DNA of 64,000 nt from Synergistetes bacterium HGW-Synergistetes-1 (GCA_002839185.1 PGXO01000010.1:62001-126000); one strand, 5' to 3'; numbered from the stretch's first letter, positions 16,177 through 62,522 are shown. The notes: generated by a model not told the origin, from the sequence alone. A program made the numbers and translations.

Positions 16177-16298
16177 GACGTTATTTTATTGTCACTAAGT
16201 TTTACCTCATGCACCCAAGGTTGTCAAGAAGAGACTTTTAACACATATCATGGAACCTGGAAAGGACCATTGAAACAACAAGTATTGTTTTTTAAGTA

Positions 16299-27780: not shown

Positions 27781-27912
27781 ATGAGGATGAACAACGCCCG
27801 CGCATAACATCCATCATCTTTTCTCGGGTCGCCTGACTTCCCCTAAAGGGTCACAGTGGCGGGGCCGCTCCGGACTCGCACCGGATTCCCCCTTAAAAGA
27901 CGCTGATATTCA
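27781..27912 (-). promoter_or_regulatory. Cobalamin riboswitch (upstream of btuF)
   Basis: The minus strand shows GGGGGAATCCGGTGCGAGTC, then GGAGCGGCCCCGCCACTGTG, and a B12 box variant AGTCAGGCGACCCG (27838-27825). This is the compact form of the aptamer. An extended -10 promoter candidate (TGATAGAAT, 28000-27992) lies upstream. Low cobalamin should allow read-through into the btuFDC-exbBD-tonB operon. Confidence 0.93.
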
Positions 27913-28059
27913 TTTTTTTATCAATGAGCTGCGCTTCGAAAACTGGAACCGTGCATATATTTCCATTCTTGTGCCTGCATCATGTGCGCATATTCTATCA
28001 TAAGAGGCAGCAATTGTTATAAATATGCATAAATAGATGTGTTAGATGTGTTTTTTCAT

Positions 28060-28163: not shown

Positions 28164-29569
28164 TCAGGGAAAATGTCACCTTTTAGGAGGATAACTGATC
28201 AGCAGAAATGTCATCCCTTTTATTTTTTGTATAGAACATATCAGTGTAATTGAACCAAGGAGATTTGTTCTTTTTAGAGGTGACAGCCTCAGTTTTCTTT
28301 ATGTCAGTGGAATTATCCTGCGCGTGCATTTGTATTTTGCTGTCCGGAAGTTGGGTTTTAAGCAGTTCTGGTTTAATAACCAAGCCATTGAAAAGGATCT
28401 GTACCCCTATATGTTTACTGCTGGCTACGGTCAAAGTCTCGTGAGGCGATGCATATATTCTTTTATTGTCGGCATAAAAAGGCAAACGGTATTTTTGCCC
28501 CTCAAAAGAAAAAGAAAGTCCTGAATCAAGTTTTCTTGTGTAATGCTTAGCAAAGATGAACTGCAGCGCCGACATATCCTCCTTCGGTAAATAGGCCTTC
28601 AGCGGGTTAACGGCTTGGACGGCGAATTTGCGGTTGTAGTATGGAATATACAGCTTTATAAATTCATTGGCCTGTTCCACAGAGATAATTCCTTTGCGCT
28701 GCATATCTTTAGACAGCCGATCCTGTAAAGTTTCCCAGAGCCTTTCAATACAGCCTTTTGCCTGAGGAGACCCAGCAATGATAAGCAGAATATTTAGTTC
28801 TTTGAGTGCTCTGGCGAAGTTGGGTTGTTTCTCATCCTTGCCGGCCAGTTCTTCTGCAATTGTTAGTTTCTTTTTCTTTTTACTGTCGTAAGCAAATACC
28901 GTTCTGCCATCGGTATAGATTTCTCTTGGTAAATGTCCGTCCTGATTCATTTGATACATTAGTTCGCAATAGCCTTCCAAGGTCTCTTCCTTTTCAAAAT
29001 GAAGAGCAAGGATTCGACCTGTGGCATCGTCAACCGCACCGTGCAGGTGCAGGTAAGAGCCATTGCCAAACCAATCGAAACTGGAAGCATCCATCTGAAT
29101 CATTTCCCCCTCGCGTTCTCTGGCATCTCTTGAACGATGTTTCTTTGGCCTGCGCTTAGCTTTCGGGGAGCGGATGCCAAGTGCTTTAAGGTATCTTGAA
29201 ATGCTGCTTACAGAGACAAAGATGTCATTTTCTTCAGCAAGAATGTCTGTGGCATGACAAAAATTATAGTTTGGTAAATCTGTCTGATAAATCCGGCAGA
29301 TTTTATTAACAACCTCAGGATCTAATGCATTAGAAGGCTTTCTTTCTCTATTTTTATGCAGAATGCTCATGATCCCATTTGTGGATGCCTCAGCTTTTAT
29401 CCGCTGTACCTGTCGCACACTGATGTCTAAACGTTCTGCCGCCTGTTTGTTTGTAAAACGGCCCGCCAACAGTTCTTCGATAATAGTTATTTTCCTGGCT
29501 TCTTGCTTGCTCATTTTTATTTTCATCCTCTCATTTTATCTTTATTAGAGGGGATGACATTTTCCCTGA
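28164..29569 (-). mobile_element. Insertion sequence, ISNCY/IS1202-like
   Basis: The element is bounded by imperfect inverted repeats: TCAGGGAAAATGTCACC at 28164-28180, and the reverse complement of TCAGGGAAAATGTCATCC ending at 29569. A further internal copy, AAATGTCATCCC, lies near 28206-28217. One transposase gene fills the element. No convincing target-site duplication is seen in the immediate flanks. It has inserted between the btuF promoter region and the tRNA promoter. Confidence 0.85.
28183..29526 (-). CDS. ISNCY-family DDE transposase
   Basis: A 447-residue transposase. An N-terminal helix-turn-helix is visible at FTNKQAAERLDISVRQVQRI. The rve-type DDE core shows D in MIQMDASSFDWFG, D in REIYTDGRTVF and E in SPQAKGCIERLWETLQDRLS. 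The C-terminal Mu-like beta region includes GLSFSFEGQKYRLP. The frame is intact, so the enzyme may be active. It differs from the neighbouring genes in having a low-GC, Lys-rich composition. Confidence 0.9.
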   Translation of the reverse strand: MKIKMSKQEARKITIIEELLAGRFTNKQAAERLDISVRQVQRIKAEASTNGIMSILHKNRERKPSNALDPEVVNKICRIYQTDLPNYNFCHATDILAEENDIFVSVSSISRYLKALGIRSPKAKRRPKKHRSRDAREREGEMIQMDASSFDWFGNGSYLHLHGAVDDATGRILALHFEKEETLEGYCELMYQMNQDGHLPREIYTDGRTVFAYDSKKKKKLTIAEELAGKDEKQPNFARALKELNILLIIAGSPQAKGCIERLWETLQDRLSKDMQRKGIISVEQANEFIKLYIPYYNRKFAVQAVNPLKAYLPKEDMSALQFIFAKHYTRKLDSGLSFSFEGQKYRLPFYADNKRIYASPHETLTVASSKHIGVQILFNGLVIKPELLKTQLPDSKIQMHAQDNSTDIKKTEAVTSKKNKSPWFNYTDMFYTKNKRDDISADQLSS

Positions 29570-29672: not shown

Positions 29673-29758
29673 GGTAGGATGGCCGAGTGGTCAAAGGCAA
29701 CAGACTGTAAATCTGTCGGCGAGAGCCTACGCTGGTTCAAATCCAGCTCCTACCACCA
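29673..29758 (+). tRNA. tRNA-Tyr (anticodon GTA)
   Basis: A class II tRNA with a long variable arm. Acceptor GGTAGGA pairs with TCCTACC; the anticodon stem ACAGA/TCTGT encloses CTGTAAA, giving anticodon GTA; the T arm has GGTTCAAATCC. CCA is encoded at 29756-29758. Confidence 0.95.
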
Positions 29759-29795
29759 TTATTTTGCCCAAAATGCCCTTACCGCATTATTGGTT

Positions 29796-29871
29796 GCCGC
29801 CTTAGCTCAGTAGGTAGAGCACATCCATGGTAAGGATGGGGTCCCCGGTCCGAGTCCGGGAGGCGGCTCCA
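29796..29871 (+). tRNA. tRNA-Thr (anticodon GGT)
   Basis: Acceptor GCCGCCT pairs with AGGCGGC; the D arm has AGCTCAGTAGGTAGAGC; the anticodon stem CATCC/GGATG encloses ATGGTAA, giving anticodon GGT; the T arm has GGTCCGAGTCC. CCA is encoded at 29869-29871. It is co-transcribed with tRNA-Tyr. Confidence 0.95.
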
Positions 29872-31430: not shown

Positions 31431-31459
31431 TTGACACGTGTTCAAGTTATGTATATACT
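31431..31459 (+). promoter_or_regulatory. mazEF promoter
   Basis: A consensus TTGACA at 31431-31436, a 17-base spacer, and TATACT at 31454-31459. The -10 is buried inside the operator palindrome. Confidence 0.8.
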
Positions 31460-31470
31460 TGTATATACAT
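31449..31470 (+). promoter_or_regulatory. MazE autoregulatory operator
   Basis: ATGTATATAC-TT-GTATATACAT is a perfect 10-2-10 inverted repeat overlapping the -10 box. MazE-type antitoxins usually repress their own promoter, and this is the obvious site. Confidence 0.75.
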
Positions 31471-31482
31471 GAGGTGATGAGA

Positions 31483-31731
31483 ATGCTTACTACGATCAAA
31501 AAATGGGGGAACAGTCAGGGGATAAGGCTTCCTCTGGATATTCTGAGAGAAGCGAAAATTGACAAGGAAAGTGCCGTCAATATTTCTGCACAGGGAAACT
31601 GCATTGTAATAACGAAAGCTGAAACCCCAAAAAAGCGTCAGAATATAATGGAGCTTTTTGAGGGATATAAAAATGAGTACGAACCGACTGAGATCGACTG
31701 GGGTGAACCTGTAGGTAAGGAAGTATGGTAA
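31483..31731 (+). CDS. mazE: MazE/AbrB-type antitoxin
   Basis: An 82-residue swapped-hairpin AbrB protein, with KKWGNSQGIRLPLDILREAK as the DNA-binding barrel and an acidic C-terminal tail (NEYEPTEIDWGEP) that would wrap the toxin. The ATG at 31483 has GAGGTGAT in front; the longer frame from 31438 starts inside the promoter. Its stop overlaps the mazF start. Confidence 0.9.
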   Translation: MLTTIKKWGNSQGIRLPLDILREAKIDKESAVNISAQGNCIVITKAETPKKRQNIMELFEGYKNEYEPTEIDWGEPVGKEVW

Positions 31732-32054
31732 GCCAGGGTGATATCATTATGCTTAATTTTGATCCTCATGCCGGGCACGAACAGGCAGGCTACAGGACTG
31801 CATTAGTAGTCAGCAACAACTTTTTCAACATTAAGACCAACATGGCTAGTGTATGCCCCGTAACTAACACAGACAATGAATTCCCCCTTCATATAAGGCT
31901 TGACGATAGGACCCAAACCACCGGAGTCATACTTTGCGAACATGTCAAATCACTCGACATAAACAGAAGACACTTCAGGATCGTTGAGAAGCTGCCCCAG
32001 GATATTCTGCAGAGGGTCGTCGACGTTATCTGTTCAGAGATCGAGATACTGTGA
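31725..32054 (+). CDS. mazF: MazF/PemK-type endoribonuclease toxin
   Basis: A 109-residue toxin of the MazF fold: QGDIIMLNFDPHAGHEQAGY, RTALVVSNNFFN, VCPVTNTDNEFPLHI and GVILCEHVKSLDI carry the usual ligand loops and basic residues. It would cut mRNA at short recognition sequences unless held by MazE. It overlaps mazE by seven bases. Its sequence is intact, so the pair is probably functional. Confidence 0.92.
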   Translation: MVSQGDIIMLNFDPHAGHEQAGYRTALVVSNNFFNIKTNMASVCPVTNTDNEFPLHIRLDDRTQTTGVILCEHVKSLDINRRHFRIVEKLPQDILQRVVDVICSEIEIL

Positions 32055-32342: not shown

Positions 32343-32370
32343 ATTGCCCCTCACTCAGCTGAGGGGCAAT
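32343..32370 (-). terminator. Terminator of the racemase operon
   Basis: ATTGCCCCTCA pairs exactly with TGAGGGGCAAT across a six-base loop, about 40 bases past the racemase stop. The minus strand continues AAATATAAAT, so the uridine tract is weak. Confidence 0.6.
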
Positions 32371-32408
32371 ATTGAAAGGAGGACAACTTATAGCAGGGGA
32401 CAGTTTTT

Positions 32409-33479
32409 CTAGCAGAATATTTTCTGCACATAGGATGACGTAGAGGCAGAAAGCATTGCAGGGTAATCAGGGCGGAATCTCAAGGTGTCTCCCGCTTTAT
32501 ATTTTTTAGGACAATCTTCCAGATCCACAAGGAGGTGGTCGCTTGAAGCAGTGATGATCTCCACACCCTCATCAAGCGGCAAGAGCCCTTCTATCCTGAT
32601 ATCCTGCCTGCCTATTGCAAGAACTCCGCGCAGCCTGTTGCCTCTATCAAGAAATATCGGAACGTTTCCTGAGAAGTCCATCCCGATTTCTCCTATCGGA
32701 AGGGTTGGTTTTACGCGAACTTCACACAATTCTGCCACAATTTCCATGGTATCCTGGCTGAGCATGGTAAATGGGAAATTTTCAGAGGAATCAGTGCCTA
32801 AAAGTATCGATTCACCAAGTCTGAGGCTATTTATCCCTTCGGGAATGTTCCCCCTTATCATTTGGACAAGCGAACAGGTGCCGCCGCCGGATACTAAGTC
32901 GATAGGTCTGTTAAGCTTGTTCTCCATCTCCTTGCAGTATTCAAGAAGCCGTGTCAAATTATCATGTCCCGGCAGCGCTCCACTCGCGCAGGCAAAATTT
33001 GCACCCACCCCCGCAATATGCAGATAAGGCGAAATGTTCTTTAATTTCTCATATGATGACTCTAATTCTGTCGGCCAGAATCCTTCGCGTAAATCTCCCA
33101 TGTCGATCATTATTACAATTTTATGATTCTTCTTTAGTTTGTCGCAAATACGGGACATTTCAAGGATACTGTCCAGTTCAGAAACCAGAGAATAATCACA
33201 AAACTTGACTGTGTCTTCGATCTCAGAGGGCATAGGTATCCTTATCAGGGCATATTCACCTTGTATCCCCTCCTCTTTCATCTTTACGATGTTAGATATC
33301 CTGCTGTCTGCGAGTATCTGAAATCCAGCTTTTTTGAAGGCCAGCGCGATCTCCGGATGAGCACTCATTCCTTTTGTTACGGCCCACAGCGAGATACCGT
33401 GCATGGAGCACTCTTTGATCAGAATTTGTCCGTTATTAACGATCTTGTCTGTTTGTATTTTCATTATTGGGTATCGCAA
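32409..33479 (-). CDS. PLP-dependent amino-acid racemase (ornithine racemase/YhfX-like, COG3457)
   Basis: A fold-type III racemase of 356 residues. The N-terminus YPIMKIQTDKIVNNGQILIK aligns with the alanine-racemase-like YPxLxIDLxKI start, and Lys in SLWAVTKGMSAHPEI is the expected PLP lysine. GVGANFACASGALPG, DLVSGGGTCSLVQM and LRLGESILLGTD match the COG3457 family of Orr and YhfX. TTG 33479 is preferred as start: AGGAGG is nine bases upstream, while the longer frame to 33554 enters the previous gene. Being coupled to homoserine dehydrogenase, it may racemise homoserine or a related amino acid (inference). Confidence 0.8.
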   Translation of the reverse strand: MRYPIMKIQTDKIVNNGQILIKECSMHGISLWAVTKGMSAHPEIALAFKKAGFQILADSRISNIVKMKEEGIQGEYALIRIPMPSEIEDTVKFCDYSLVSELDSILEMSRICDKLKKNHKIVIMIDMGDLREGFWPTELESSYEKLKNISPYLHIAGVGANFACASGALPGHDNLTRLLEYCKEMENKLNRPIDLVSGGGTCSLVQMIRGNIPEGINSLRLGESILLGTDSSENFPFTMLSQDTMEIVAELCEVRVKPTLPIGEIGMDFSGNVPIFLDRGNRLRGVLAIGRQDIRIEGLLPLDEGVEIITASSDHLLVDLEDCPKKYKAGDTLRFRPDYPAMLSASTSSYVQKIFC

Positions 33480-33492
33480 GGTGGGAGTCCTC

Positions 33493-34518
33493 CTAATATG
33501 GGCTATTATCCGATATTGATATAAGGTCCTCAATGACACCGTAGGCTGTGTCAAGAAGATCAGGGCGATCCTGGATCAGAGTGTTCGTGTGCATAAGGTC
33601 TGATTCAAAGCGTATTGCGGCTCCAAAGTGAGATATCAGAGCCATTACATCGTCTTTGTTAACCTCTTCCACTTTTACACTGGCCGTTATTTTTCCATCA
33701 ACATTATGAGCACGGCACATCAGCTTTAGCCTTTTCCCACGCTTTAAGGCATCCTGGCACATTTCGGGCGTGATTTGGGAGATTCCTTTACGTTCCACAT
33801 CATAGGGAGTAATATGCGCATCCATAAGTACATTGGCAAATGCTGCGGTCTTTGCGGCAGGGTCCCATCCGTCCGTATCCATTGTTGGGTCTGCTTCAGC
33901 AATCCCAGCTAACTGAGCCTGTTTTACTCCCTCTTCAAAAGTGCCGCCATTTTCCATGTACGATAGTATGTAGTTCGTCGTTCCGTTCAGGATACCGGAG
34001 AATCCTTTAATAGTGGATCCCTTCATGCAGCGCCGGACGAGGTTGAAAACTGGCGCCCCATCCATTACAGCAGATTCAAACAAATACTTAACGCCCTTTT
34101 CGTCCGCCAGCTTCTTCAACTTATGGTAATTGAAAGCAACCGGTCCTTTGTTTGCAGATACTACAGACTTACCGCGTTCAAGTGCGGCATGGATGTATGA
34201 AGAAGCAGGCTCTCCGTGTTCGCTGATCGATAGTGCCGATAGCTCAACAAGAACGTCGTAGTCAAGTATCTGCGCCGCTTCAAGCGGTGTGAGGAAAGAG
34301 AGTTGCTCGTCTTCACAAACCAATGTATTTTTTTCTTTTAGGCTGCGTAAAACGGATCTCAGATCAAGCCCGTTGGTATTTTCGACACCGCCATGACGCT
34401 GAGTAAAAACACCGATCACAGTAGGAGCCAGGTCAAGCTTAGGGTAAAGCTCTTTTTCTGTTAAAATTCGCGCCGTCTCTTTTGCAACATTTCCAAATCC
34501 AATAAATAAAATTCTCAT
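33493..34518 (-). CDS. Homoserine dehydrogenase, short form
   Basis: 341 residues with a Rossmann start (ILFIGFGNVAKETAR), SANKGPVAFNY, the signature GILNGTTNYIL, and catalytic AGIAEADPTMDTDGWDP with AAK. It lacks the C-terminal ACT regulatory domain of biosynthetic enzymes (about 430 aa), so it may escape threonine feedback and work in the catabolic direction, homoserine to aspartate semialdehyde. Start ATG 34518 has GGGAG eight bases upstream; another start at 34533 is possible. It is 13 bases from the racemase gene. Confidence 0.85.
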   Translation of the reverse strand: MRILFIGFGNVAKETARILTEKELYPKLDLAPTVIGVFTQRHGGVENTNGLDLRSVLRSLKEKNTLVCEDEQLSFLTPLEAAQILDYDVLVELSALSISEHGEPASSYIHAALERGKSVVSANKGPVAFNYHKLKKLADEKGVKYLFESAVMDGAPVFNLVRRCMKGSTIKGFSGILNGTTNYILSYMENGGTFEEGVKQAQLAGIAEADPTMDTDGWDPAAKTAAFANVLMDAHITPYDVERKGISQITPEMCQDALKRGKRLKLMCRAHNVDGKITASVKVEEVNKDDVMALISHFGAAIRFESDLMHTNTLIQDRPDLLDTAYGVIEDLISISDNSPY

Positions 34519-34551
34519 TATATCTACTCCCATATTTTCTTGTGCAATAAA

Positions 34552-34583
34552 GGCTGCGTACGACTTTTAAGTCGCCCGCAGCC
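34552..34583 (-). terminator. Intra-operon hairpin between the antiporter and homoserine dehydrogenase genes
   Basis: GGCTGCG/CGCAGCC with an inner GCGACTT/AAGTCG stem, followed on the minus strand by TTTATT. It may lower expression of the two downstream enzyme genes relative to the transporter. Confidence 0.55.
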
Positions 34584-34608
34584 AGCTAGTGTTAGAGTTC
34601 CAGATATG

Positions 34609-36048
34609 CTATTTTTTGAGCCTTACATTGGGCTCTGCAGGCAGGCCAAAGAGAGGGATAAATCTGTCTAATCCTGTAAATGTCAGGATATATATCGAAA
34701 GCACGGTGATGATCGCCATGAAATTATAGTAGAGATCTCCGACCGTGAAAGTATAGAGAGGATAGACAGCGGCTGCAAGTCCCATATAGTACGCAACACC
34801 CGTATGCCATGGGATCAAAGCTGCGGTGTGCACGCCCACCGCGTCGGAAAAGAGCGCATTCCTGTTGCGAAGTATATATTTATCTTCCTCTGAACCCTCT
34901 ACATTATCGTCTACTATACCTTTGATTACTGGTCCCACTGTAGCCATCTGCGACATCTCTTCGTTAAGAGTCGCATTTATGATAAGGCAGAGAAGCCCAT
35001 TGCAGACCAAAAGATGACGCACACGTTTGCTTATTTTGACAAAGAACGCCGCAACAGGGCCAAATGCATCCATTCTTCGCATTACGGCCCCAAAACCCAT
35101 GGCCCAGAAGAGCATTATGACAGCCCAACTTCCCGCATCTTCAAAACCTGACTGGACCAATCCAATTACGTCTTTCAGCGAAGTTACAGTTCCTGCAAGA
35201 AAACCGAATAGGATTGCAAGGACAATGCCCGATGATAGGCATGAGATAGTATCCATTTTCATTATAGCCATCGTTATTACTATTATTACAGGAATTACCA
35301 TGTACAACGGCACACCTTCTGCAACCTGATCCAGCAGAGTCAAAACAGCCGGACGCTCTTCCTGAAGGATAGCTATTGTTTTCTCGGACATGGTGGCAAG
35401 TATCTGTGACGGGTCTCCGACTGTTTCCGGAAGCCCCATTGAAATGCTTACTGCGTAAAAACAAATTGCAGACAAAATAACACATATAGCTGACCATGGT
35501 GCCTGAGTCCTTACCCTGTCAACAACCTTTATGCCTTGCAGCCCCGAACTCAATATCGTTGTATCTGAAATCAACCCAATATTATCACCGAAGGCAGAAC
35601 CTCCGACACAAGCCGCAAAAGTCAGCGCCGGATTTCCTCCGACTACATTACACAACCACATAAAAATAGGAATACAAGCTGCGAATGTCCCCCATGATGT
35701 TCCTGTAGATACGGACAGAGCACAAGTGGTCAGGAAAGCAACCACTGCAACCGTTTTCCCCGTAACCCCAATGTTGATAAAGATCGATATAGCTGCTGCC
35801 CCGACACCTGTCGACATAAAAATTTCGGCAAGTGCATAGGCCAACATAAGTATAAAGGCCAAAAGAGTCGCTTCTTTGGCTCCCTCTACGCCTTCATTCA
35901 GCACTTCCGAGAATTTCATTTTCTCTGTAACCTTACAAATGGCTGCCGCAACAAAAAGCCCTATCGAAGCAGAGATAAGTATATCTACTCCATTCACTAC
36001 CATTACTGCCAAAAGAACAACGGGCGACAATTTTAACAATGCGATCAA
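34609..36048 (-). CDS. NhaC-family Na+/H+ or substrate antiporter
   Basis: A 479-residue membrane protein of about twelve helices. SVSTGTSWGTFAACIPIFMW and SAFGDNIGLISDTTILSSG with the conserved D-T are the NhaC-family core, and a second repeat includes NATLNEEMSQMATVGP. NhaC relatives include malate/lactate and amino-acid antiporters. Its place between amino-acid enzymes suggests import of their substrate in exchange for sodium or a product, although this is inference. Confidence 0.82.
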   Translation of the reverse strand: MIALLKLSPVVLLAVMVVNGVDILISASIGLFVAAAICKVTEKMKFSEVLNEGVEGAKEATLLAFILMLAYALAEIFMSTGVGAAAISIFINIGVTGKTVAVVAFLTTCALSVSTGTSWGTFAACIPIFMWLCNVVGGNPALTFAACVGGSAFGDNIGLISDTTILSSGLQGIKVVDRVRTQAPWSAICVILSAICFYAVSISMGLPETVGDPSQILATMSEKTIAILQEERPAVLTLLDQVAEGVPLYMVIPVIIVITMAIMKMDTISCLSSGIVLAILFGFLAGTVTSLKDVIGLVQSGFEDAGSWAVIMLFWAMGFGAVMRRMDAFGPVAAFFVKISKRVRHLLVCNGLLCLIINATLNEEMSQMATVGPVIKGIVDDNVEGSEEDKYILRNRNALFSDAVGVHTAALIPWHTGVAYYMGLAAAVYPLYTFTVGDLYYNFMAIITVLSIYILTFTGLDRFIPLFGLPAEPNVRLKK

Positions 36049-36071
36049 TGTAAAACCCCCTTTAGAAAATT

Positions 36072-36105
36072 AAAGTGTGCCGCCTTCCGGCAGGCACACT
36101 TTTTG
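36072..36105. terminator. Hairpin between the aminotransferase and antiporter genes
   Basis: AAGTGTGCC pairs with GGCACACTT around an inner GCC/GGC stem, with T-tracts on both strands. It lies four bases past the aminotransferase stop and may separate or attenuate the two cistrons. Confidence 0.65.
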
Positions 36106-36108
36106 AAA

Positions 36109-37218
36109 TTACTTCAGGCTTTCCTTTACAGAATCAGAAATAGACTTGAGTCCTCTAGCAAGCTCATCATGCAAAGGCCAGCCATAACCGATCCTCATGT
36201 ATCGTTTGCTCTGCTCAAACCAGTGCCCGGGACCTACATACGTACCGTATTTCTCATTCATTAAGCGGTAAACCTTTTCAACATCCACTTCTACTTCCGG
36301 TTTTATCCTCGGAAAACAAGTGCAGGCGGCTCTTGGTTCAACCCATTCCATGAATTCTTCCTGTTCTATCCACTCTTTAACAACTGCAAATCTATCCGCT
36401 ATAGTCGCGTCGTTTTGCTTGATCCATTCATCTTTTTGCGACAAAGCGACATAGCCGATATATTCATCGACTACACTGCCTCCAATACATACCTGTTCTT
36501 TGGCACAAAGCAGAAGATCGTTTATCTTTTTATTCCGGCATACAGTCCAGCCTATTCGAATACCGGGAATCCCATATGTTTTAGAGAGTGATGATACGGA
36601 TATTACCTTGTCAGAAAGAGAAGCTGCGACAGGAAGGACTTCATCCTTAAACATATCTCTGTATGTTTCGTCTATGAGAAGCCAGACATCGTGTTTTTCA
36701 GCTATTGCAATTACTTCTTTTAGCTCTGAAAGAGACATCATCGTTCCCGTAGGGTTGTGAGGGTTAGTCAATGAAATGTACTTAGTGTCAGGTTTTATCA
36801 TATACTTGAGTTTGTCAATATCTACTTTAAATCCTTCTTCAAACTTCTGGTCGAGATAGCTAATGTCGGCACCTATTGCACGAGGCGTTTCAATATTTGT
36901 TCCATAATTTGGTCTTGCGACTATCATTTTGTCGCCGGGTTCCAAGAGAGACGATGCAACTAAAAACAGAGCTGAAGCAGCACCGGCAGTAACAAGCACA
37001 TCATTTGGATCGTCTAAGCCGGACTGCTGAGCAATAGTTTCACGGAGGCGGGGATCTCCGAGGTGATCACCATAAGGAAGGATCATGTCGTCGATCACAA
37101 GTCCAAGACCTCTTATATTCCTGTCTCTAACTGAAGTCTCTGTTAGGTTGTTTTTTATTTTTTCATATCCTAACTGCTCAGGCGATTCTTTTTCTATGGA
37201 CATCCTTACGTATTTCAT
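36109..37218 (-). CDS. PLP-dependent class I/II aminotransferase
   Basis: A 369-residue fold-type I aminotransferase. Motifs: DPRLRETIAQQSG, VTAGAASALFLVASSLLEPG, SLTNPHNPTGTMMS, LIDETYRD with the PLP Asp, SSLSKTYGIPGIRIGW with the catalytic Lys, and MRIGYGW. The substrate cannot be predicted. It is the first gene of the cassette operon, divergent from the PucR regulator that probably controls it. Confidence 0.88.
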   Translation of the reverse strand: MKYVRMSIEKESPEQLGYEKIKNNLTETSVRDRNIRGLGLVIDDMILPYGDHLGDPRLRETIAQQSGLDDPNDVLVTAGAASALFLVASSLLEPGDKMIVARPNYGTNIETPRAIGADISYLDQKFEEGFKVDIDKLKYMIKPDTKYISLTNPHNPTGTMMSLSELKEVIAIAEKHDVWLLIDETYRDMFKDEVLPVAASLSDKVISVSSLSKTYGIPGIRIGWTVCRNKKINDLLLCAKEQVCIGGSVVDEYIGYVALSQKDEWIKQNDATIADRFAVVKEWIEQEEFMEWVEPRAACTCFPRIKPEVEVDVEKVYRLMNEKYGTYVGPGHWFEQSKRYMRIGYGWPLHDELARGLKSISDSVKESLK

Positions 37219-37263
37219 TTTATTATCCTCCTGTTGTCACATGTTGCTTCCGGCGTTTCTATT

Positions 37264-37422
37264 ACACGCGCGCACGTGTTTACAACAAGAAGTTTATTGT
37301 CATGAAAAACGCAAATCAAACACCATTTTATATAATAAAAAACAATTATTGACCACTTTTTTGTAAATAAACAACAGGTAAGCCTAACTACTTTTGCTAA
37401 AATAGGATAGAATATAGCAAAA
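37264..37422. promoter_or_regulatory. Divergent control region of the cassette
   Basis: This AT-rich 325-base gap between the aminotransferase and pucR-type genes holds two candidate operator sites. An imperfect palindrome, ACACGCGCGCACGTGT, lies at 37264-37279. A perfect inverted repeat, TTTTGCTA/TAGCAAAA, with a 15-base spacer lies at 37392-37422. A TAGAAT hexamer sits in the second spacer. No gene is visible. Confidence 0.5.
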
Positions 37423-37543
37423 TTATTTCTTTTAAAACCATAAAAATCTACATATTCAACTAGTTAACAAAAAATTGGATCGTTTTTTGGTTTTGAATCA
37501 CATAGGTAATATTATAAAAAATTACAACATTTGGGTGGTTTTT

Positions 37544-38731
37544 ATGTATTACATGATCTCAGATTTTTTGAACACATATGGATCTAATGTCTCTTTGATA
37601 GCCGGCAGTGGAGGGCTTTCGAGGATCGTTAAGGACGTTGGAATACTTGACTATGAACTGGACACTTCTTTAAGGAGCAAATATTTCCACACAAGTCTTT
37701 TTAGGGATCAACTTGTGCTGACAACTTTTCTTTGCGCAAAAGATGACATATCAATGATCGGAGAGGGCATAAAACACCTTCTCAAGCAAGATGCAAGCGC
37801 TTTGGCAATAAGAAATGTATTTCATCTCCCCATCCCCGAATCTGTACTGAGATATGCTGATTCCAAAAATTTTCCAATAATATTGATCAATTCGATGGAT
37901 ATATATTTTGAAAAGATCATTTATGACGTCAACAGATATGTCGAACGAATGGCAGATATTAACTTTATGCAAAATGAGGTAAATATACTGCTTTCACGAA
38001 AACTTTCAACAGATGAGGTCAGAGACCATGCGAAACTCATAGATCCGTCGTTTGAGGAAAGGTATATAGCCATATATTTTATGAGCCGGGACTATTTTAG
38101 CGAATCAGACTTTCTTGAATGCTTTGAAAGATATGACAAGAGTTGTTTTTCAACACCAGCAAGTACTATGTGCCTCTACAAACACGGCGCATTTTTGTTC
38201 TATTCCTGCGATGACACCTCAGTAATGTTCGATGACAATTTTGTGTCCCAGGCTGTAAAAAAGATCTTCCCGGACCCATCTAACTACACAATAGGAATAA
38301 GCAGACCGCACTTCAGCCTTGGGGAATTTTCAGTCTGCCTCAGAGAAAGTCTTTGTGCAGCACTTTTAAACAAAAATCTCCAAAAGCCTTTTTTGAGATA
38401 CAGTGAGCTTGGGGCATATGAGATAATTTTCCCCTTTGCAAAAAGCAAAGAAATGCAGGATTTTAAGAAAAAAGTTCTGGAGCCAATTAATGAGTGCGAC
38501 GCAGAGAACAACACAAACTTGCTTGAAACACTTACCCAATATGTACTATCCGGCTGCAAAATGCGCGTTGCAGCAAAAATGACTTTACAGCATGAAAATA
38601 CAGTCCGCTACAGATTAGAAAAGATAGCTATACTGACCGGACTCGATTTTAAATCCGAGGCACAGCGGGAAGAGCTCTCACTAGCGGTAAAAATTGACAT
38701 ATGCAGCGGACTGCTTGGAGATGAAGTATGA
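37544..38731 (+). CDS. PucR-family transcriptional activator
   Basis: A 395-residue regulator. The N-terminal PucR domain (GSGGLSRIVKDVGILDYELD onwards) is followed by a GGDEF-like middle part, and the C-terminal HTH_30 reads LSGCKMRVAAKMTLQHENTVRYRLEKIA. The family typically controls purine, GABA or amino-acid catabolism in response to a metabolite. ATG 37544 has GGGTGG upstream; an earlier start at 37475 is possible. It is divergent from the aminotransferase-antiporter-hom-racemase operon, its obvious target. Confidence 0.85.
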   Translation: MYYMISDFLNTYGSNVSLIAGSGGLSRIVKDVGILDYELDTSLRSKYFHTSLFRDQLVLTTFLCAKDDISMIGEGIKHLLKQDASALAIRNVFHLPIPESVLRYADSKNFPIILINSMDIYFEKIIYDVNRYVERMADINFMQNEVNILLSRKLSTDEVRDHAKLIDPSFEERYIAIYFMSRDYFSESDFLECFERYDKSCFSTPASTMCLYKHGAFLFYSCDDTSVMFDDNFVSQAVKKIFPDPSNYTIGISRPHFSLGEFSVCLRESLCAALLNKNLQKPFLRYSELGAYEIIFPFAKSKEMQDFKKKVLEPINECDAENNTNLLETLTQYVLSGCKMRVAAKMTLQHENTVRYRLEKIAILTGLDFKSEAQREELSLAVKIDICSGLLGDEV

Positions 38732-38764: not shown

Positions 38765-40444
38765 TTAAAATTTCATCATTCCGCCCTCGGCTGCTGAGGC
38801 AGCGAGTTTTGCGTATATGCCCAGGATGCCTTTCAGTTCCTTCTGAGGAGGTCTTTTCCAATCTTTTAGGCGGGCTTCAAGCTCCTCGGGAGAGAGGTCT
38901 ACATCCAGTTTTTTATTTTCAACATCTATGGTGATGATGTCTCCGTCCCTGACTGCGGCTATGGGGCCGCCTTCAGCGGCTTCGGGGGATATGTGGCCGA
39001 CAAAGCAGCCGTTGTTGGTTCCGGAGAAACGGCCGTCTGTAATTATCGCGGTCTTTTTTGCAAGGCCCCTGCCGTAAAGCAGTTTCATGGCGAAATACAT
39101 TTCACGCATTCCGGGGCCGCCTTTCGGGCCCTCGTAACGGATGACCAGGACATCGCCCTCTTTTATATTCCCGTCAAGGATCGCCCGGTTCGCATCTTCT
39201 TCGCAGTCAAAGACTCTTGCAGGTCCGGAAAAATGGTACATCGACGGATCCATAGCGATGGGTTTTGTTATCCCTGTCCCCGGAGCAAGGTTACCCCGCA
39301 TCACTGCCAGACCGCCCGATTTGCAGAAAGGATCTTCCTTTGTACGTATCACACGCCTGTCAACTCCGAAGGGACTTGACCGATCCTCAAGGTTCTCGCC
39401 AAGGCTCTTTCCGCTTACAGTCATGCAAGAGAGGTCTATCTCGTTTTCCAGCTCCTTCATGACCTGCGGGATGCCTCCGGCGCGGTAAAAGTCCTCCATA
39501 TCGTACTCTGAGGCAGGATTTACCATAGCGATAGACGGGATATTTTGACTCGCCCTGTCGTAAATATCTATCATTGTCCCGGGTGCTATACCTATCTCGT
39601 TCCCTATGGCTGAAAGGTGAATGAAGCAGTTAGTCGAGCCGCCGGTAGCGACCATTATCTTCGCAGTGTTTTCAAGGGAGTCTTTCGTAATGATGTCGTG
39701 CGCTGTGATGTTTTGCCTGACAAGTTCGACGATCTTTTTCCCGGTCTCTTCCGCTGCCCTGGAACGGGCAGCGCTTGTAGCGGGTATAAGGGACGATCCC
39801 GGGAGGGACATGCCCATGGCTTCTGCCGCGCAACCCATCGAGTTGGCGGTGCCGTAGTATGAGCATGAACCGCATGAGGGTGCGGCATTGTCTTCGAGCA
39901 TTGATAAAGTCTCTTTTGTGATCCGTCCGGCACTCAGCATACCCACAGCCTCCGATACAGAGGTGGAGTCGCTTTTGCGCCCGTCAAACGAAACTCCTCC
40001 GGCCATTGGACCTCCGACAAGCAATATCGCCGGAATGCCCAGCCTGGCGGCCGCCATCAGCATGCCCGGAACTATTTTATCGCATGATCCAAGCATAACA
40101 ATGCCATCAAGCCTGTGGGCTTCGGCCATTGCTTCGATGTCGCATGCTATAAGGTCTCTGGTGGGGAGTATGTATTTCATGCCGTTATGTCCGCATGACT
40201 GTCCGTCACAGGCGGCTATTACGCCAAACTCGACCGCCATTCCGCCTGCCCTGTATATGCCCTTTTTTACGAACTCAGAAAGGTTCCTGAGGTTGTAATG
40301 TCCTGGCACCAGCTCGTTCCATGAGTTTGCTATTCCTATTAGGGGACCCTTTAGGTCTTCGTCAGAGAAGCCCATAGATTTATAAAGGGCCCTGTTTTCA
40401 GTAAACACCGGATCTGAAAGTATTTCGGAACTTCTGAATTTCAT
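38765..40444 (-). CDS. ilvD: Dihydroxy-acid dehydratase (IlvD)
   Basis: A 559-residue IlvD/Edd-family Fe-S dehydratase. Cluster and Mg ligands appear in ACDGQSCGHNG, LGSCDKIVPGM and APSCGSCSYYGTANSM. The active-site serine region TDGRFSGTNNGCFVGHISPEA is present. Length and start fit branched-chain amino-acid synthesis (dihydroxyisovalerate to ketoisovalerate). No other ilv gene is here, and it follows the GntR gene by only 28 bases. It may instead serve the neighbouring hydroxy-acid pathway. Its 3' end is partly duplicated at 32069-32274. Confidence 0.88.
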   Translation of the reverse strand: MKFRSSEILSDPVFTENRALYKSMGFSDEDLKGPLIGIANSWNELVPGHYNLRNLSEFVKKGIYRAGGMAVEFGVIAACDGQSCGHNGMKYILPTRDLIACDIEAMAEAHRLDGIVMLGSCDKIVPGMLMAAARLGIPAILLVGGPMAGGVSFDGRKSDSTSVSEAVGMLSAGRITKETLSMLEDNAAPSCGSCSYYGTANSMGCAAEAMGMSLPGSSLIPATSAARSRAAEETGKKIVELVRQNITAHDIITKDSLENTAKIMVATGGSTNCFIHLSAIGNEIGIAPGTMIDIYDRASQNIPSIAMVNPASEYDMEDFYRAGGIPQVMKELENEIDLSCMTVSGKSLGENLEDRSSPFGVDRRVIRTKEDPFCKSGGLAVMRGNLAPGTGITKPIAMDPSMYHFSGPARVFDCEEDANRAILDGNIKEGDVLVIRYEGPKGGPGMREMYFAMKLLYGRGLAKKTAIITDGRFSGTNNGCFVGHISPEAAEGGPIAAVRDGDIITIDVENKKLDVDLSPEELEARLKDWKRPPQKELKGILGIYAKLAASAAEGGMMKF

Positions 40445-40472
40445 AATAATATCTTCCTTCGGCTATCTGCTT

Positions 40473-41138
40473 CTACTTAAGAAAATAATCTTTCATTATA
40501 TTGCTCTCGCTCTTTGCGATATGTTCGTAGAGCAAAGATGAGAGGCCCCTGGCATCCCTGTCTCGAAGCTTTTCCAGTATCTCAACGTGCTGACCGATCG
40601 TTTCATGGATGTTTGCCAGGGACTGCGCAGAAAGCTTCTGGAAACGTTTTATCTGCGCGTGGTATGTTGTGATGATGGCACCAATACGTTTATTAGTCGC
40701 GTATTTCGTTATGGTCAGGTGTAGGAGCAGATCCATGTCAGAGACGCGAGTCAGGTCTACCTCTCCTGCGAGCGCAGCCTTTTTGAGGACTTTCCAGCCT
40801 CTCTCCATCTCGTCTATCTCCTCTTCCGGGATCCTGTTTACTGCGGAAAGTGCTGCGAAGGGTTCCAGCAGTTTGCGTATATCGTATATCTCTTTGAGAT
40901 CTTCGAGGGATATTTCTGATACAAAGGCGCCTTTTTGGGGAATTATCTTGACGTATCCGTCCTGTTCCAGGCTGCGCAGGGCTTCACGGATAGGCGTTCT
41001 GCTGACCCCTATCTCCCTGGCAAGCTGGTTTTCGGGCAATGGAGCTCCCATCTCGATCTCTCTTGATTCGATAGCGTCACGGATCCATTCGTATGCTTTG
41101 GTCCAGCTGGCCTTTTCTTGGTCATGCATTAATGACAC
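40473..41138 (-). CDS. GntR-family regulator, FCD (FadR) subfamily
   Basis: A 221-residue repressor. Winged-helix GAPLPENQLAREIGVSRTPI and REALRSLEQDGYV, then the all-helical FCD ligand domain with the metal-ligand pattern DLLLHLTITKYATN and the late histidines (THETIGQHVEILE-like HETIGQHVEI). FCD regulators sense organic acids. It is divergent from the larA-acnX-TRAP operon and co-directional with ilvD. Two TGTATACA sites in the shared control region are good operator candidates. Confidence 0.88.
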   Translation of the reverse strand: MSLMHDQEKASWTKAYEWIRDAIESREIEMGAPLPENQLAREIGVSRTPIREALRSLEQDGYVKIIPQKGAFVSEISLEDLKEIYDIRKLLEPFAALSAVNRIPEEEIDEMERGWKVLKKAALAGEVDLTRVSDMDLLLHLTITKYATNKRIGAIITTYHAQIKRFQKLSAQSLANIHETIGQHVEILEKLRDRDARGLSSLLYEHIAKSESNIMKDYFLK

Positions 41139-41159
41139 CCTCCATTATTTTAACTTAAC

Positions 41160-41167
41160 TGTATACA
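41160..41167. promoter_or_regulatory. Candidate GntR operator 1
   Basis: TGTATACA, within the perfect ten-base palindrome CTGTATACAG, lies 21 bases upstream of the gntR start. The same octamer recurs at 41417. Confidence 0.55.
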
Positions 41168-41416
41168 GCAAACATACATCTTTATCACAGTTTTGTCCAT
41201 ATATTTCATTGAATATCCGGCAATATACTACATCCGGCCGGATCGATAAACAAAAATCTGTTTACAAGCTGAACCTTTGATATAAGAGGATTCACAAATT
41301 TCAGAGTTGACATAAATATTAGCAGATACTATTATGCAAACATATTTAAGAAAACTTTTTTGACCGGACGATCTATTCATAGGGTAATGCCAAAACGGAA
41401 TGGGATAATCTTTGCA

Positions 41417-41424
41417 TGTATACA
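41417..41424. promoter_or_regulatory. Candidate GntR operator 2
   Basis: TGTATACA lies 50 bases upstream of the larA ATG. The octamer matches the first site and the inverted TGTATACA style of FadR-subfamily operators. The rest of this 337-base gap has no gene. TTGACC at 41360 is a possible -35. Confidence 0.55.
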
Positions 41425-41474
41425 GACTACATACTTGCGATACACAAGTCACATACCATAGAAGGGCAAAGCTG

Positions 41475-42764
41475 ATGAGATACGACATACCATACGGAGA
41501 TAAGAAAGTATTTTTTGAGGCGCCGGAAGGAGCTGTCATATTCGAAGGAAAAATGACCAGTATCCCCGGAATCAAAGATTTGGAAGGTGCACTGATCTCG
41601 GCGCTTGAATCGCCTATCGGAGCCCCCTCACTCAAAGACCTCGCCAGGGACAAAAAAAATATTGTATTTTTGGTCGAGGACAACACACGAAGCACTCCTC
41701 TCCACATCATCATGCCTATCATTACAGATTACCTGAACGAAAACGGTGTTCCGGACAGCGCTATGAGTTTCCTCACAGCTCCCGGAACCCACAGGCTCAT
41801 GACCAACGAAGAAATCCTGGAAAAACTCGGTGCTGAAATGGTAAGGCGTTTCAAAGTGCTACAGCACGACGCCAACGTGAGCGAAGACATGAAGGATCTC
41901 GGAACAGTCCCTGCAGGCGATTATAAGATCCCTGTACACGTAAACAAATACGCATTGGGGGCTGATCTCCTGGTCGGCATCGGCAATATAGTGCCGCACT
42001 GCGACGCCGGTTATTCGGGCGGCGCAAAGATACTTCAGCCGGGAGTCTGTGATTTCGTTACCACATCAGCTACCCACGCGGCGGCAGGCTTCTGCCCTGA
42101 CATTCCCCTAGGAATGGCAGACGGCAATCCATGCCGCATGGGCATGGAAGAGGTGGCAAAGATCGCCGGACTCGCCTTTATCGTCAACACAGTAAAGAAC
42201 TATGAGGGAGAGGTAGCCGGCATTTTTGCAGGAGACTTCATCAAAGCTCACAGAGAGGGAGTAAAGCTTGCGAAAAGATCCTACAGTATAAGTGTGCCGG
42301 AACCTGCAGACATCGTCATCGTAAGCTCTTCACCATCAGATATGGACTATTGGCAGGCCTGTAAAGGTACGACCTGCGCATACTTCGCAGTCAAAAAAGG
42401 CGGAGTAGTGATATTCGCTGCTCCATGCACAGAAGGACTGGCTCACAACCATCCCCGTTTCAGAGAGTGGCTCTCGCTGCCCCTGGACGAGGTCCTCAGA
42501 AGGCTTCTCGCGGCTTCCCCTGAAGATGTGGAAGCTGACATGGTCTCTGCGGTGCTGTCTGTCTGCAACTGCCGGGCCAGGGACAAGGCGAAAATATACT
42601 GCGTCTCTGACGGCCTGACAGGAGAAGATCTTGCCGCGATGCAGTACAAGCCATTCCCCACAGTTCAGGCTGCTCTTGATGAAGCAATGCGCCTGATCCC
42701 CAACGCCACAATAGGCATTATTCCAAAGGGCGGCATTTCACTGCCGGTCCTCGAAAATATATAG
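41475..42764 (+). CDS. larA: LarA-superfamily nickel-dependent 2-hydroxyacid racemase/epimerase
   Basis: A 429-residue protein of the LarA superfamily, which uses a nickel pincer nucleotide to interconvert 2-hydroxyacid stereoisomers by hydride transfer. Visible motifs are VEDNTRSTP, APGTHRLMTNEEI with the conserved His, and SGGAKILQPGV, whose Lys covalently holds the cofactor in characterised LarA. Start ATG 41475 is preferred over 41412, which lies in the operator region. The cofactor genes larBCE are not in the window. Association with aconitase X and a TRAP carrier means the substrate is probably not lactate (inference). Confidence 0.85.
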   Translation: MRYDIPYGDKKVFFEAPEGAVIFEGKMTSIPGIKDLEGALISALESPIGAPSLKDLARDKKNIVFLVEDNTRSTPLHIIMPIITDYLNENGVPDSAMSFLTAPGTHRLMTNEEILEKLGAEMVRRFKVLQHDANVSEDMKDLGTVPAGDYKIPVHVNKYALGADLLVGIGNIVPHCDAGYSGGAKILQPGVCDFVTTSATHAAAGFCPDIPLGMADGNPCRMGMEEVAKIAGLAFIVNTVKNYEGEVAGIFAGDFIKAHREGVKLAKRSYSISVPEPADIVIVSSSPSDMDYWQACKGTTCAYFAVKKGGVVIFAAPCTEGLAHNHPRFREWLSLPLDEVLRRLLAASPEDVEADMVSAVLSVCNCRARDKAKIYCVSDGLTGEDLAAMQYKPFPTVQAALDEAMRLIPNATIGIIPKGGISLPVLENI

Positions 42765-42784
42765 CAAAAGAAAGGCGGCTGACT

Positions 42785-44002
42785 ATGTTTCTTACGGATG
42801 AAGAAAAACGGATACTTGACGGAGCCGAAGGTGCCGGAAAGCAGAAAGCAATGGAAATGCTCTATGCGCTCGGGCTTACCTTCGACGCGGAAAAGCTGAT
42901 CCCGATAAAGCGTGCTCATGTAGCGCTGAGCGGACAGGAGGGCGACACTTACTGGTGCGAGCTCCTTGTAGAAGGTGGCGCTACCTGCGCTGTTCCGCCA
43001 ACGACCAATCCATACTGGAACACTGACTACCTGACCAAATTCTATGACGTAACTAAAGAGGAACTCGACCTGGCTAACCGCACAGGCGAAGCATACCGCA
43101 AGATAGGCGCGATACTGACATACCACTGCGCTCCAGGAGTATGCTCCAACGTACCATTCCTTGGAGAGCACATAGCATTTTCGGAATCAAGCGCGACTCC
43201 CTATGTGAACGGAGCCCTGGGTGCACGCTCAAACCGTGAGTCATCAATAAGCGCGCTTGCTGCCGCAGTAGTCGGAAAGACCCCTTATTACGGATACCAC
43301 CTAGACGAAAACAGGCACGGCGACATTCTTATTGAAGTCGATGCCGAACTCAGCGAATGTTACGACTGGGGCATCCTCGGGCACTGCATCGGAGAGATGG
43401 CAGGATCGCTTGACCCTGTCCTTGTATTCAAAAATAAGGTGCTTCCCTCGCAGGAAGACTTCCTTTACTTCGGAGCCGAGGCCGCGACAAGCGGAGCAGT
43501 CGCAATGTATCACATGGTGGGCATCACGCCTGAGGCATTCACTCTCGAAGCAGCTTTCGGCGGCAAAAAAGTTCCCGCCCCCGCAGCACTTATCACCAAT
43601 AAAACACTGAAGGACCAAGAGACAAAACTTACAGCAGCTACAGGTGACATCAACCTGGTAATGCTTGGCTGCCCTCACTACACATACAGCCAGATCCTCG
43701 AAATCGAAAGGCTCTTCGCCGGAAGGAAGGTCAGCCACAACACCGCCTTCTGGATACTCGCGGAATCCGGTGCCGTAGAGCTTGCCGAGCGTTCCCGACT
43801 CCGCCAGAAGCTGGAGCTTTTGGGAGTCCGCATGGTCGGAAACACCTGCATCGACGAACCCTGCTGGAAATCATTCGAAGGCAGCCTTGGCGTGACAGAC
43901 TCTCCTAAATGCGCATACTACAGGGAGCGCCGCGGACAGCCATTCGCTATCCGCAGGCTTTCAGAGTGTGTCGAGGCAGCAATAAAAGGGAGGCTGGACT
44001 AA
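42785..44002 (+). CDS. Aconitase X, large (catalytic) subunit
   Basis: A 405-residue AcnX/DUF521 protein. TNPYWNTDYLTKF, ILTYHCAPGVCSN, FSESSATPYVNGALGARSNR and the Cys pair in NTCIDEPCW match the family. AcnX enzymes are Fe-S dehydratases; known members act on cis-3-hydroxy-L-proline or mevalonate 5-phosphate. The separate large and small subunits match the two-chain type. The gap to larA is 20 bases and its stop overlaps the small subunit start. The actual substrate is unknown. Confidence 0.88.
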   Translation: MFLTDEEKRILDGAEGAGKQKAMEMLYALGLTFDAEKLIPIKRAHVALSGQEGDTYWCELLVEGGATCAVPPTTNPYWNTDYLTKFYDVTKEELDLANRTGEAYRKIGAILTYHCAPGVCSNVPFLGEHIAFSESSATPYVNGALGARSNRESSISALAAAVVGKTPYYGYHLDENRHGDILIEVDAELSECYDWGILGHCIGEMAGSLDPVLVFKNKVLPSQEDFLYFGAEAATSGAVAMYHMVGITPEAFTLEAAFGGKKVPAPAALITNKTLKDQETKLTAATGDINLVMLGCPHYTYSQILEIERLFAGRKVSHNTAFWILAESGAVELAERSRLRQKLELLGVRMVGNTCIDEPCWKSFEGSLGVTDSPKCAYYRERRGQPFAIRRLSECVEAAIKGRLD

Positions 44003-44430
44003 TGTCTGAGGATATGAAAGTCTATAAGTGCCGCAAGATAGTAAAGGGCAGCGCATGCGGAGAGGCTGTCGTCTCCACTGACGCGATGTGTTTCTACCTG
44101 ACTGACCCAGAGACCGGCATTGTAATAGAAAGAAATCATGCGATACATGGCAAAAGCATCGCCAACAAGATACTGGTACTCAAATCAGGCAAGGGCAGCT
44201 CTGTCGTCCAGGTAGACGGTTTCTACCAGCTGTGGGTCAAAAACAATCTACCTGCCGCAATCATACTCAAGGATACAGAACCTGTCATAGTATCCTCTGC
44301 CGTAATGGTCGGATGTACGATGGTCGACCGCATGGAGTCCGACCCCTATGAAGCCATCGCGGACGGTGACTACGTAGAGGTCGACGCTGACAAGGGTGAG
44401 ATCCGCGTTAGAAAAAATAAGCAAGCATAA
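44002..44430 (+). CDS. Aconitase X, small (swivel) subunit
   Basis: A 142-residue DUF126 protein. KIVKGSACGEAVVSTDAMCF, the TGIVIERNHAIHGKS block and LKSGKGSSVVQVDGFYQLWV are the AcnX swivel-domain hallmarks, with the Ser of GKGSS at the active site. ATG 44002 overlaps the large-subunit TAA (TAATG). The longer open frame from 43909 is only a shadow. Confidence 0.9.
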   Translation: MSEDMKVYKCRKIVKGSACGEAVVSTDAMCFYLTDPETGIVIERNHAIHGKSIANKILVLKSGKGSSVVQVDGFYQLWVKNNLPAAIILKDTEPVIVSSAVMVGCTMVDRMESDPYEAIADGDYVEVDADKGEIRVRKNKQA

Positions 44431-44507
44431 AAATAGGTAGTTACGCCGCAAAAAGGGCGTTTTCTATAATTCTGTAATAAGCAAAAAATTAAAGGGGGAA
44501 ACAGCAA

Positions 44508-45500: not shown

Positions 45501-45517
45501 GAGTAAGTTTTGCACCA

Positions 45518-45551
45518 CCGCTTCCGCCCTGCGGGACGGAAGCGGCTTTTT
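45518..45551 (+). terminator. Attenuating hairpin between dctP and dctQ
   Basis: CCGCTTCCG pairs with CGGAAGCGG and is followed by CTTTTT. A partial terminator here would make much more binding protein than membrane subunits, as is common for TRAP operons. Confidence 0.75.
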
Positions 45552-45577
45552 GGCATTAAGAGGGGGTCGAACCTGCA

Positions 45578-46084: not shown

Positions 46085-46095
46085 GGGGCGGGACC

Positions 46096-62506: not shown

Positions 62507-62522
62507 TCGGTCCTATATGAAT

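What the first reader, a model, noticed from the sequence alone, without database searches (positions are those of the whole stretch)
32409..38731. PucR-linked racemase-homoserine dehydrogenase-antiporter-aminotransferase cassette, a possible homoserine catabolic module
The short homoserine dehydrogenase lacks the ACT domain and sits with an Orr/YhfX-like racemase, an aminotransferase and an NhaC-type antiporter rather than with threonine biosynthesis genes. PucR regulators usually control catabolism. A reasonable reading is uptake of homoserine (perhaps D-homoserine), racemisation, and oxidation to aspartate semialdehyde, with the aminotransferase completing the route. The substrate is an inference.
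Basis: partly seen in the sequence, partly recalled or inferred. Interest (0 to 1): 0.68.

Follow-up and report, generated by a model that had tools for sequence, protein, structure and literature searches.

The report
Homoserine dehydrogenase catabolic operon variant
An anaerobic amino-acid-fermenting bacterium carries a regulated four-gene operon (transporter, racemase, PLP enzyme and an unusual extra homoserine dehydrogenase) that probably breaks down homoserine or a related amino acid, but the exact substrate is not shown.

Summary
The genes are real and correctly placed. They form one minus-strand operon: PLP enzyme "AT", PF03553 transporter, homoserine dehydrogenase (HSD), fold-III racemase, with a divergent PucR regulator. 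The host is a Synergistaceae genome. It has a complete thrC-thrB-lysC-asd cluster and a separate standard HSD, so this HSD is an extra. The same four functions recur in other genera, with near-identical AT and transporter but HSD and racemase from other clades. The set was apparently assembled at least twice, so the link looks functional.

The catabolic-homoserine reading is plausible but partly mis-argued. Lack of ACT is not diagnostic: the biosynthetic HSD lacks it too. Racemase and transporter fail the Orr and NhaC cut-offs. The "aminotransferase" belongs to the GntC/VioD/OrfR branch of PLP cyclases/lyases and keeps its catalytic signature. These HSDs are a distinct subfamily: active site kept, C-terminal glycine loop lost. 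No ALDH or aspartase is nearby, unlike proven homoserine or canavanine pathways.

Best reading: a PLP gamma-lyase/hydratase makes homoserine and HSD oxidises it. The substrate is unproven.

The parts
32346..32367 (-). hairpin GCCCCTCA-GCTGAG-TGAGGGGC just after the racemase stop; possible operon end (no T-run)
   Evidence: read from sequence; not called by the terminator scan, so inference only
32409..33479 (-). RAC: fold-III PLP racemase-like protein (Ala_racemase_N, Orr/YhfX group), TTG start at 33479 preceded by AGGAGG; first in-frame start is 33554
   Evidence: PF01168 66.7 bits; NF040742 366 bits against cut-off 480; tree
33493..34518 (-). HSD: homoserine dehydrogenase of a distinct Synergistota subfamily, no ACT domain (ORF opens at 34533)
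   Evidence: substrate/catalytic residues K, NGT, E, D, K kept; GxGAG loop lost
34609..36048 (-). PF03553 (NhaC superfamily) membrane transporter, probably amino acid uptake
   Evidence: PF03553 82 bits; TIGR00931 61.6 against cut-off 370; 84-85% identical copies in G021, G142, G084
36109..37218 (-). AT: fold-I PLP enzyme of the PRK07324/GntC/VioD/OrfR branch
   Evidence: invariant E9, E27, S29, N155, D183, Y186, K213, R342
37219..37474 (.). divergent intergenic region between the operon and PucR; probable promoter/operator
   Evidence: position only
37475..38731 (+). PucR-type regulator (PucR N-terminal domain plus C-terminal HTH_30); start uncertain, possibly the ATG near 37544
   Evidence: PF07905 60.9 bits, PF13556 54.9 bits; 65-82% homologues also beside AT in G084 and G003, 30% in G115

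Best explanation
The operon is a PucR-controlled amino acid utilisation module centred on homoserine. The PF03553 transporter imports a C4 alpha-amino acid carrying a gamma substituent (homoserine itself or a gamma-substituted homoserine). The fold-III racemase lets the D enantiomer be used. AT, a PLP enzyme of the GntC/VioD/OrfR branch, does gamma chemistry: it expels the gamma substituent through a vinylglycine-ketimine and, by adding water, gives homoserine (or, without water, 2-oxobutyrate and ammonia). The extra HSD then oxidises homoserine to aspartate semialdehyde, which re-enters central aspartate metabolism through the genome's Asd and aspartokinase. Shown: gene content, operon layout, recurrence, separate threonine pathway, HSD active site, AT family placement. 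Inferred: transport substrate, racemase substrate, AT reaction, direction of HSD.
For: Extra HSD: complete thrC-thrB-lysC-asd at G000 C1 plus a class-B HSD that passes the PRK06270 cut-off (381 against 373), whereas the operon HSD does not (282). AT+HSD adjacency in 13 of 16 decidable genomes and apparent independent assembly: AT 76-79% and transporter 84-85% identical in G021/G142 while HSD (about 40%) and RAC (about 37%) come from separate clades with 100/100 support. HSD keeps the substrate and catalytic residues reported for StHSD (K102, G156/T157, E185, D191, K200; PMC5893615); fold matches HSD only at the top. Homoserine as the relevant metabolite: one member of this HSD clade is divergent from MetY and MetX genes above a curated cut-off (L028). 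Gamma chemistry: AT keeps the E9/(S,T)S signature and its nearest characterised folds are GntC and OrfR; in family f10 the same HSD clade sits 2-4 kb from a methionine-gamma-lyase-like PLP enzyme instead of AT. Outside the phylum HSD follows a PLP gamma-lyase in a canavanine-type operon (L091) and a cystathionine-gamma-synthase-family enzyme in a PucR/eut-type operon (L048).
Against: No enzyme here is biochemically characterised. No ALDH, aspartase or thr gene lies in any of the module loci searched (45 loci; the window's only thr hit is a distant thrC-like gene 28 kb away), and G000 has a single PF00171 gene, unlinked, so the fate of aspartate semialdehyde is unexplained. AT is not homologous in detail to canavanine gamma-lyase (24% over 191 aa), and no guanidine-I riboswitch occurs in 25 genomes. 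In G115 AT occurs with threonine-dehydratase-like and cyclodeaminase-like genes and no HSD; in G001/G002/G007 HSD-RAC occur without AT. The MetX/MetY case shows that some clade members may work biosynthetically. All module HSDs aligned lack the usual GxGAG loop, so the substrate could have shifted. Most related loci belong to one phylum.
Confidence: 0.42

Rival explanations
1. One reading: free L/D-homoserine is imported, racemised and oxidised by HSD to aspartate semialdehyde, and AT is a true aminotransferase that finishes the route.
For: Same gene set; catabolic, oxidation-biased HSDs known from Rhizobium leguminosarum (PMC10228743, PMC3333776); PucR and transporter linkage.
Against: AT belongs to the GntC/VioD/OrfR branch and keeps its cyclase/lyase N-terminal signature. 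The operon HSD is not in the clade of the Rhizobium catabolic HSD. No ALDH in any locus.
Confidence: 0.2
2. A biosynthetic module: HSD reduces aspartate semialdehyde to homoserine, which is racemised or modified by AT to give a special or D-amino acid that may be exported or used in the cell envelope.
For: One HSD of this clade is next to MetX/MetY; locus-2 operons carry an EamA-type transporter, a family that often exports amino acids; GntC and VioD are biosynthetic enzymes.
Against: PucR family regulators mostly control catabolism (general knowledge); the window operon has an NhaC-superfamily transporter and no exporter or assembly enzymes; the thr cluster and class-B HSD already supply homoserine.
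Confidence: 0.22
3. The HSD clade acts on another gamma- or delta-hydroxy amino acid, not homoserine; the module degrades an arginine- or ornithine-like compound.
For: Loss of the GxGAG loop and of Tyr183 in the module HSDs aligned; AT kin act on hydroxyarginines; weak transporter match to ArcD (38 bits); Orr-like racemase.
Against: Substrate-binding K, E, D, K are kept; MetX/MetY linkage of one clade member; ArcD and Orr cut-offs not met.
Confidence: 0.12

Closest known systems
Rhizobium leguminosarum plasmid homoserine cluster (pRL80071 HSD; PMC3333776, PMC10228743, citing Vanderlinde 2014; L042)
   Same: An extra, short, catabolic HSD outside threonine biosynthesis, clustered with a PLP enzyme, transport and regulators.
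   Different: HSD 33% identical and in another clade; Rhizobium cluster has ALDH and aspartase-type genes and ABC uptake, no racemase, no AT, no PucR.
Canavanine utilisation operon (CanGL-HSD-ALDH-aspartase with B3/4 protein CtdA; PMC10018355; seen in L091, CB3060)
   Same: PLP enzyme that can make homoserine by gamma-elimination/hydration followed by HSD.
   Different: CanGL-position gene is of the Cys/Met (methionine gamma-lyase) family; our AT is of the GntC/VioD branch; no ALDH, aspartase or linked CtdA; no guanidine-I riboswitch.
PucR-eut type operon of Priestia megaterium plasmid (L048)
   Same: PucR regulator, PLP gamma enzyme and HSD together; EutB/EutC relatives also occur in the Synergistaceae locus 2.
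   Different: Has M24/M20 hydrolases for an ectoine-like substrate and an ALDH; no racemase.
GntC / VioD / OrfR PLP cyclases (8FFT, 4M2M; PMC10367076)
   Same: Fold, N-terminal Glu and (Thr/Ser)-Ser signature, PLP and carboxylate residues of AT.
   Different: 26-30% identity in the fold match; below GntC and VioD cut-offs; found in a metabolic operon, not natural-product clusters.

Membership tests
Homoserine dehydrogenase (PF00742) | Catalytic domain above Pfam cut-off | tested here: met
   155.2 bits against 22.9; fold match only to HSDs at the top
Homoserine dehydrogenase (PF00742) | Substrate/catalytic residues K-ANK, NGT, AEADP Glu, D...K | tested here: met
   compared with StHSD residues in PMC5893615; Tyr183 replaced by Ile
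PRK06270 HSD equivalog | Score above 373 bits and GxGAG loop | tested here: not met
   282 bits; loop replaced by QDRPDLLDTAYG; class-B HSD of the same genome scores 381
Rhizobium-type catabolic (oxidation-biased) HSD | Same clade as pRL80071 | tested here: not met
   separate clades, 100/100
Rhizobium-type catabolic (oxidation-biased) HSD | Strong preference for homoserine oxidation | not testable with these tools
   needs enzyme assay
Ornithine racemase Orr (NF040742) | Score above 480 bits | tested here: not met
   366 bits; no sampled Synergistota homologue passes either
NhaC Na+/H+ antiporter (TIGR00931) | Score above 370 bits | tested here: not met
   61.6 bits; superfamily PF03553 met, 82 against 23
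GntC/VioD/OrfR PLP cyclase-lyase branch | N-terminal Glu9 and two consecutive hydroxyl residues S25-S26, PLP Lys | tested here: met
   E9, T28-S29, K213 (the second position S29 invariant, the first Thr or Ser); nearest characterised folds
GntC/VioD/OrfR PLP cyclase-lyase branch | GntC or VioD equivalog score | tested here: not met
   221 against 415 and 199 against 391
Canavanine gamma-lyase | Homology to CanGL (Cys/Met PLP family) | tested here: not met
   24% over 191 aa to the CanGL-position gene of L091
PucR regulators | PucR domain and C-terminal HTH_30 | tested here: met
   60.9 against 33.5 and 54.9 against 27

The most novel reading that the evidence does not exclude
An uncharacterised anaerobic pathway in which a GntC-like PLP enzyme strips the gamma substituent from an unusual amino acid to make homoserine, oxidised by a new HSD subfamily that has lost the canonical glycine loop, with a racemase that opens the D enantiomer.
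Probability: 0.3. Interest if true: 0.65.

Novelty: new variant of a known kind. Interest (0 to 1): 0.45.

Why it matters
Homoserine dehydrogenase is a textbook biosynthetic enzyme; catabolic versions are known mainly from aerobic root bacteria. A widespread anaerobic version with its own subfamily, racemase and an unassigned GntC-like PLP enzyme would show a new entry point for unusual (perhaps D or gamma-substituted) amino acids in digesters and guts, and would give a function to an unassigned PLP family (the AT subfamily, and perhaps PRK07324) seen also in Shinella and in rhizobia from Mimosa and Leucaena.

Tried and rejected
Canavanine gamma-lyase identity of AT: rejected by sequence, with no guanidine-I riboswitch in 25 genomes and no riboswitch near six sampled loci. 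A standalone B3/4-domain ORF exists in G000 (C7:60587) but is unlinked and was not followed. Ornithine racemase identity: cut-off not met. NhaC antiporter identity: cut-off not met. 'No ACT means catabolic': rejected, the class-B HSD also lacks it. Ectoine degradation: the M24/M20 hydrolases of L048 do not form a set at the module loci (one M20 hit in L059). Search in other phyla: genome-contig scan found only one same-family MAG, and the genome search could not be centred outside the phylum. The 2022 CanGL paper is not held, so its enzyme family is inferred from operon position in L091. Literature searches for a homoserine racemase in this phylum and for T. maritima lysine racemase gave nothing useful.

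Full report
Observation. The five genes are present at the stated coordinates and fall in the stated broad families. Four of them (AT, transporter, HSD, RAC) lie on the minus strand with gaps of about 60, 75-90 and 13 bp and clear Shine-Dalgarno sites. They look like one operon read 37218 to 32409, with PucR divergent at 37475. The likely starts are 33479 (TTG) for RAC and 34518 for HSD. Curated cut-offs do not support the narrower names: RAC 366 bits against 480 for Orr, transporter 62 against 370 for NhaC, HSD 282 against 373 for PRK06270, AT 248 against 476 for PRK07324.

Host and genome. The only named relative found is a Synergistaceae MAG (L017, 95% HSD identity). The genome (G000, 2.17 Mb, 99.9% complete) has a full thrC-thrB-lysC-asd cluster at C1:360-364 kb. 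It has three HSDs: this one, a 67% paralogue at C5 and a distant one at C12. The C12 enzyme passes the PRK06270 cut-off. HSDs at a similar low identity to the window query are the only HSD in many family members, so it is taken as the biosynthetic enzyme. It is also about 340 aa without ACT, so the lack of ACT says nothing here about catabolism. The conclusion that the operon HSD is outside threonine synthesis still holds.

Recurrence. In 151 sampled Synergistota genomes plus relatives, close AT homologues are next to an HSD in 13 of 16 decidable cases: window, G006, G016, G020, G093, G142, G086, G021, G037, G059, G031, G012, G023. Exceptions are G003, G038 and G115; G084 and G077 are cut by contig ends. 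RAC joins in many. G021 and G142 carry AT-RAC-HSD-transporter, and G084 has the same set split over two contig ends. There AT is 75-79% and the transporter 84-85% identical to the window, but HSD is only about 40% and RAC about 37%, and both fall in other clades with 100/100 support. Window HSD and RAC instead group with those of a second locus type (TD1 divergent from HSD-RAC-TD2-OCD-EamA-SNF; with AT in G016 and G020). The simplest reading is that the same functions were put together more than once, which argues for a real functional link; different evolutionary rates cannot be fully excluded.

HSD. It keeps the lysine of ANK, the NGT motif, and the Glu, Asp and Lys of AEADPTMDTDGWDPAAK. These correspond to StHSD K102, G156-T157, E185, D191 and K200, which contact the ligand (PMC5893615); Tyr183 is Ile. 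The AlphaFold model (pLDDT 92) matches HSD structures only at the top. All module HSDs aligned lack the GPGAG loop that the class-B, Rhizobium and Priestia HSDs have in full or nearly so, and they form a clade apart from those (100/100). What that loop change does is unknown. One clade member (L028, G019) is divergent from O-acetylhomoserine sulfhydrylase and MetX genes. That supports homoserine as the substrate but shows the clade is not purely catabolic.

AT. By sequence and fold its nearest structures are an uncharacterised S. suis enzyme (3op7), GntC (8fft) and OrfR (4m2m), ahead of true aminotransferases. It keeps the N-terminal Glu and consecutive hydroxyl residues (E9, T28-S29) that GntC, VioD and OrfR share and that matter for catalysis in that group (PMC10367076), plus N155, D183, Y186, K213 and R342. 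GntC expels a gamma-hydroxyl through a vinylglycine ketimine; an enzyme of this kind could make or consume homoserine. In family f10 the same HSD clade lies 2-4 kb from a methionine-gamma-lyase-like enzyme and no AT; outside the phylum HSD follows gamma-type PLP enzymes in L091 and L048. This is suggestive, not proof.

Known systems. Catabolic HSDs are established in Rhizobium leguminosarum (PMC3333776, PMC10228743) and in canavanine use (PMC10018355). Those clusters carry an ALDH and aspartase next to HSD (L042, L091). None of the 45 Synergistota loci searched does, and G000 has one unlinked PF00171 gene, so aspartate semialdehyde would have to go through Asd/aspartokinase or back into synthesis. 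AT is not the canavanine lyase, and canavanine is not indicated by riboswitches.

Verdict. A real, recurring, regulated module around an extra HSD of a distinct subfamily. Catabolism of homoserine or a gamma-substituted homoserine is the best single reading (0.42). Every substrate assignment is inference until enzymes are assayed.

Noticed in passing
window 32367-36116 compared with L033 (G006): Sharp identity break near 33,860 inside HSD: 84-86% on the RAC side, 97-100% on the transporter side; looks like a recombination or gene-conversion junction.
   Followed up: partly
window 38765-47376: Neighbouring module: IlvD-type dehydratase, GntR, LarA-type Ni racemase, AcnX large and small subunits, TRAP transporter; another putative hydroxyacid/amino acid catabolic set.
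   Followed up: no
L075, L081 (about 9.0-10.3 kb): Orr-like racemase homologues sit in a conserved housekeeping neighbourhood (pyruvate kinase, Nfo-like, CdaA-like, GlmM-like by reading) in other Synergistota families, perhaps a cell-wall D-amino acid racemase.
   Followed up: no
L023, L052, L055, L056, L062, L063: Conserved f10 neighbourhood: methionine-gamma-lyase-like enzyme, 2-hydroxyacid dehydrogenase, Fe alcohol dehydrogenase, cysteine-desulfurase-like protein, HSD, cyclodeaminase-like, threonine-dehydratase-like; RAC and the desulfurase-like gene were never seen together at an HSD locus.
   Followed up: partly
L090, L041 (Rhizobium etli bv. mimosae), L040 (Leucaena isolate), L038, L039 (Shinella): AT orthologues (48-55%) on plasmids of rhizobia from Mimosa and Leucaena and of Shinella, beside amino acid ABC transporters and PLP enzymes; function unknown.
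   Followed up: partly
L048 (Priestia megaterium plasmid): PucR-EutB-PdxS-M24-EutC-CGS family-M20-HSD-ALDH operon: an eut-type cluster with an HSD, which is unexpected for ectoine breakdown.
   Followed up: no
window 16023-16183 and 27806-27915, minus strand: Two cobalamin riboswitches; the second lies just upstream of an ABC uptake system.
   Followed up: no
window 28183-29526 and 31438-32054: Integrase-type transposase and a MazE/MazF-like pair (by reading) close to the operon end, with tRNA-Tyr and tRNA-Thr at 29673-29871.
   Followed up: no
window 61382-63743: Amidinotransferase/deiminase-like protein with a possible signal peptide (by reading) beside a threonine-synthase-like PLP enzyme (28% to ThrC).
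   Followed up: no
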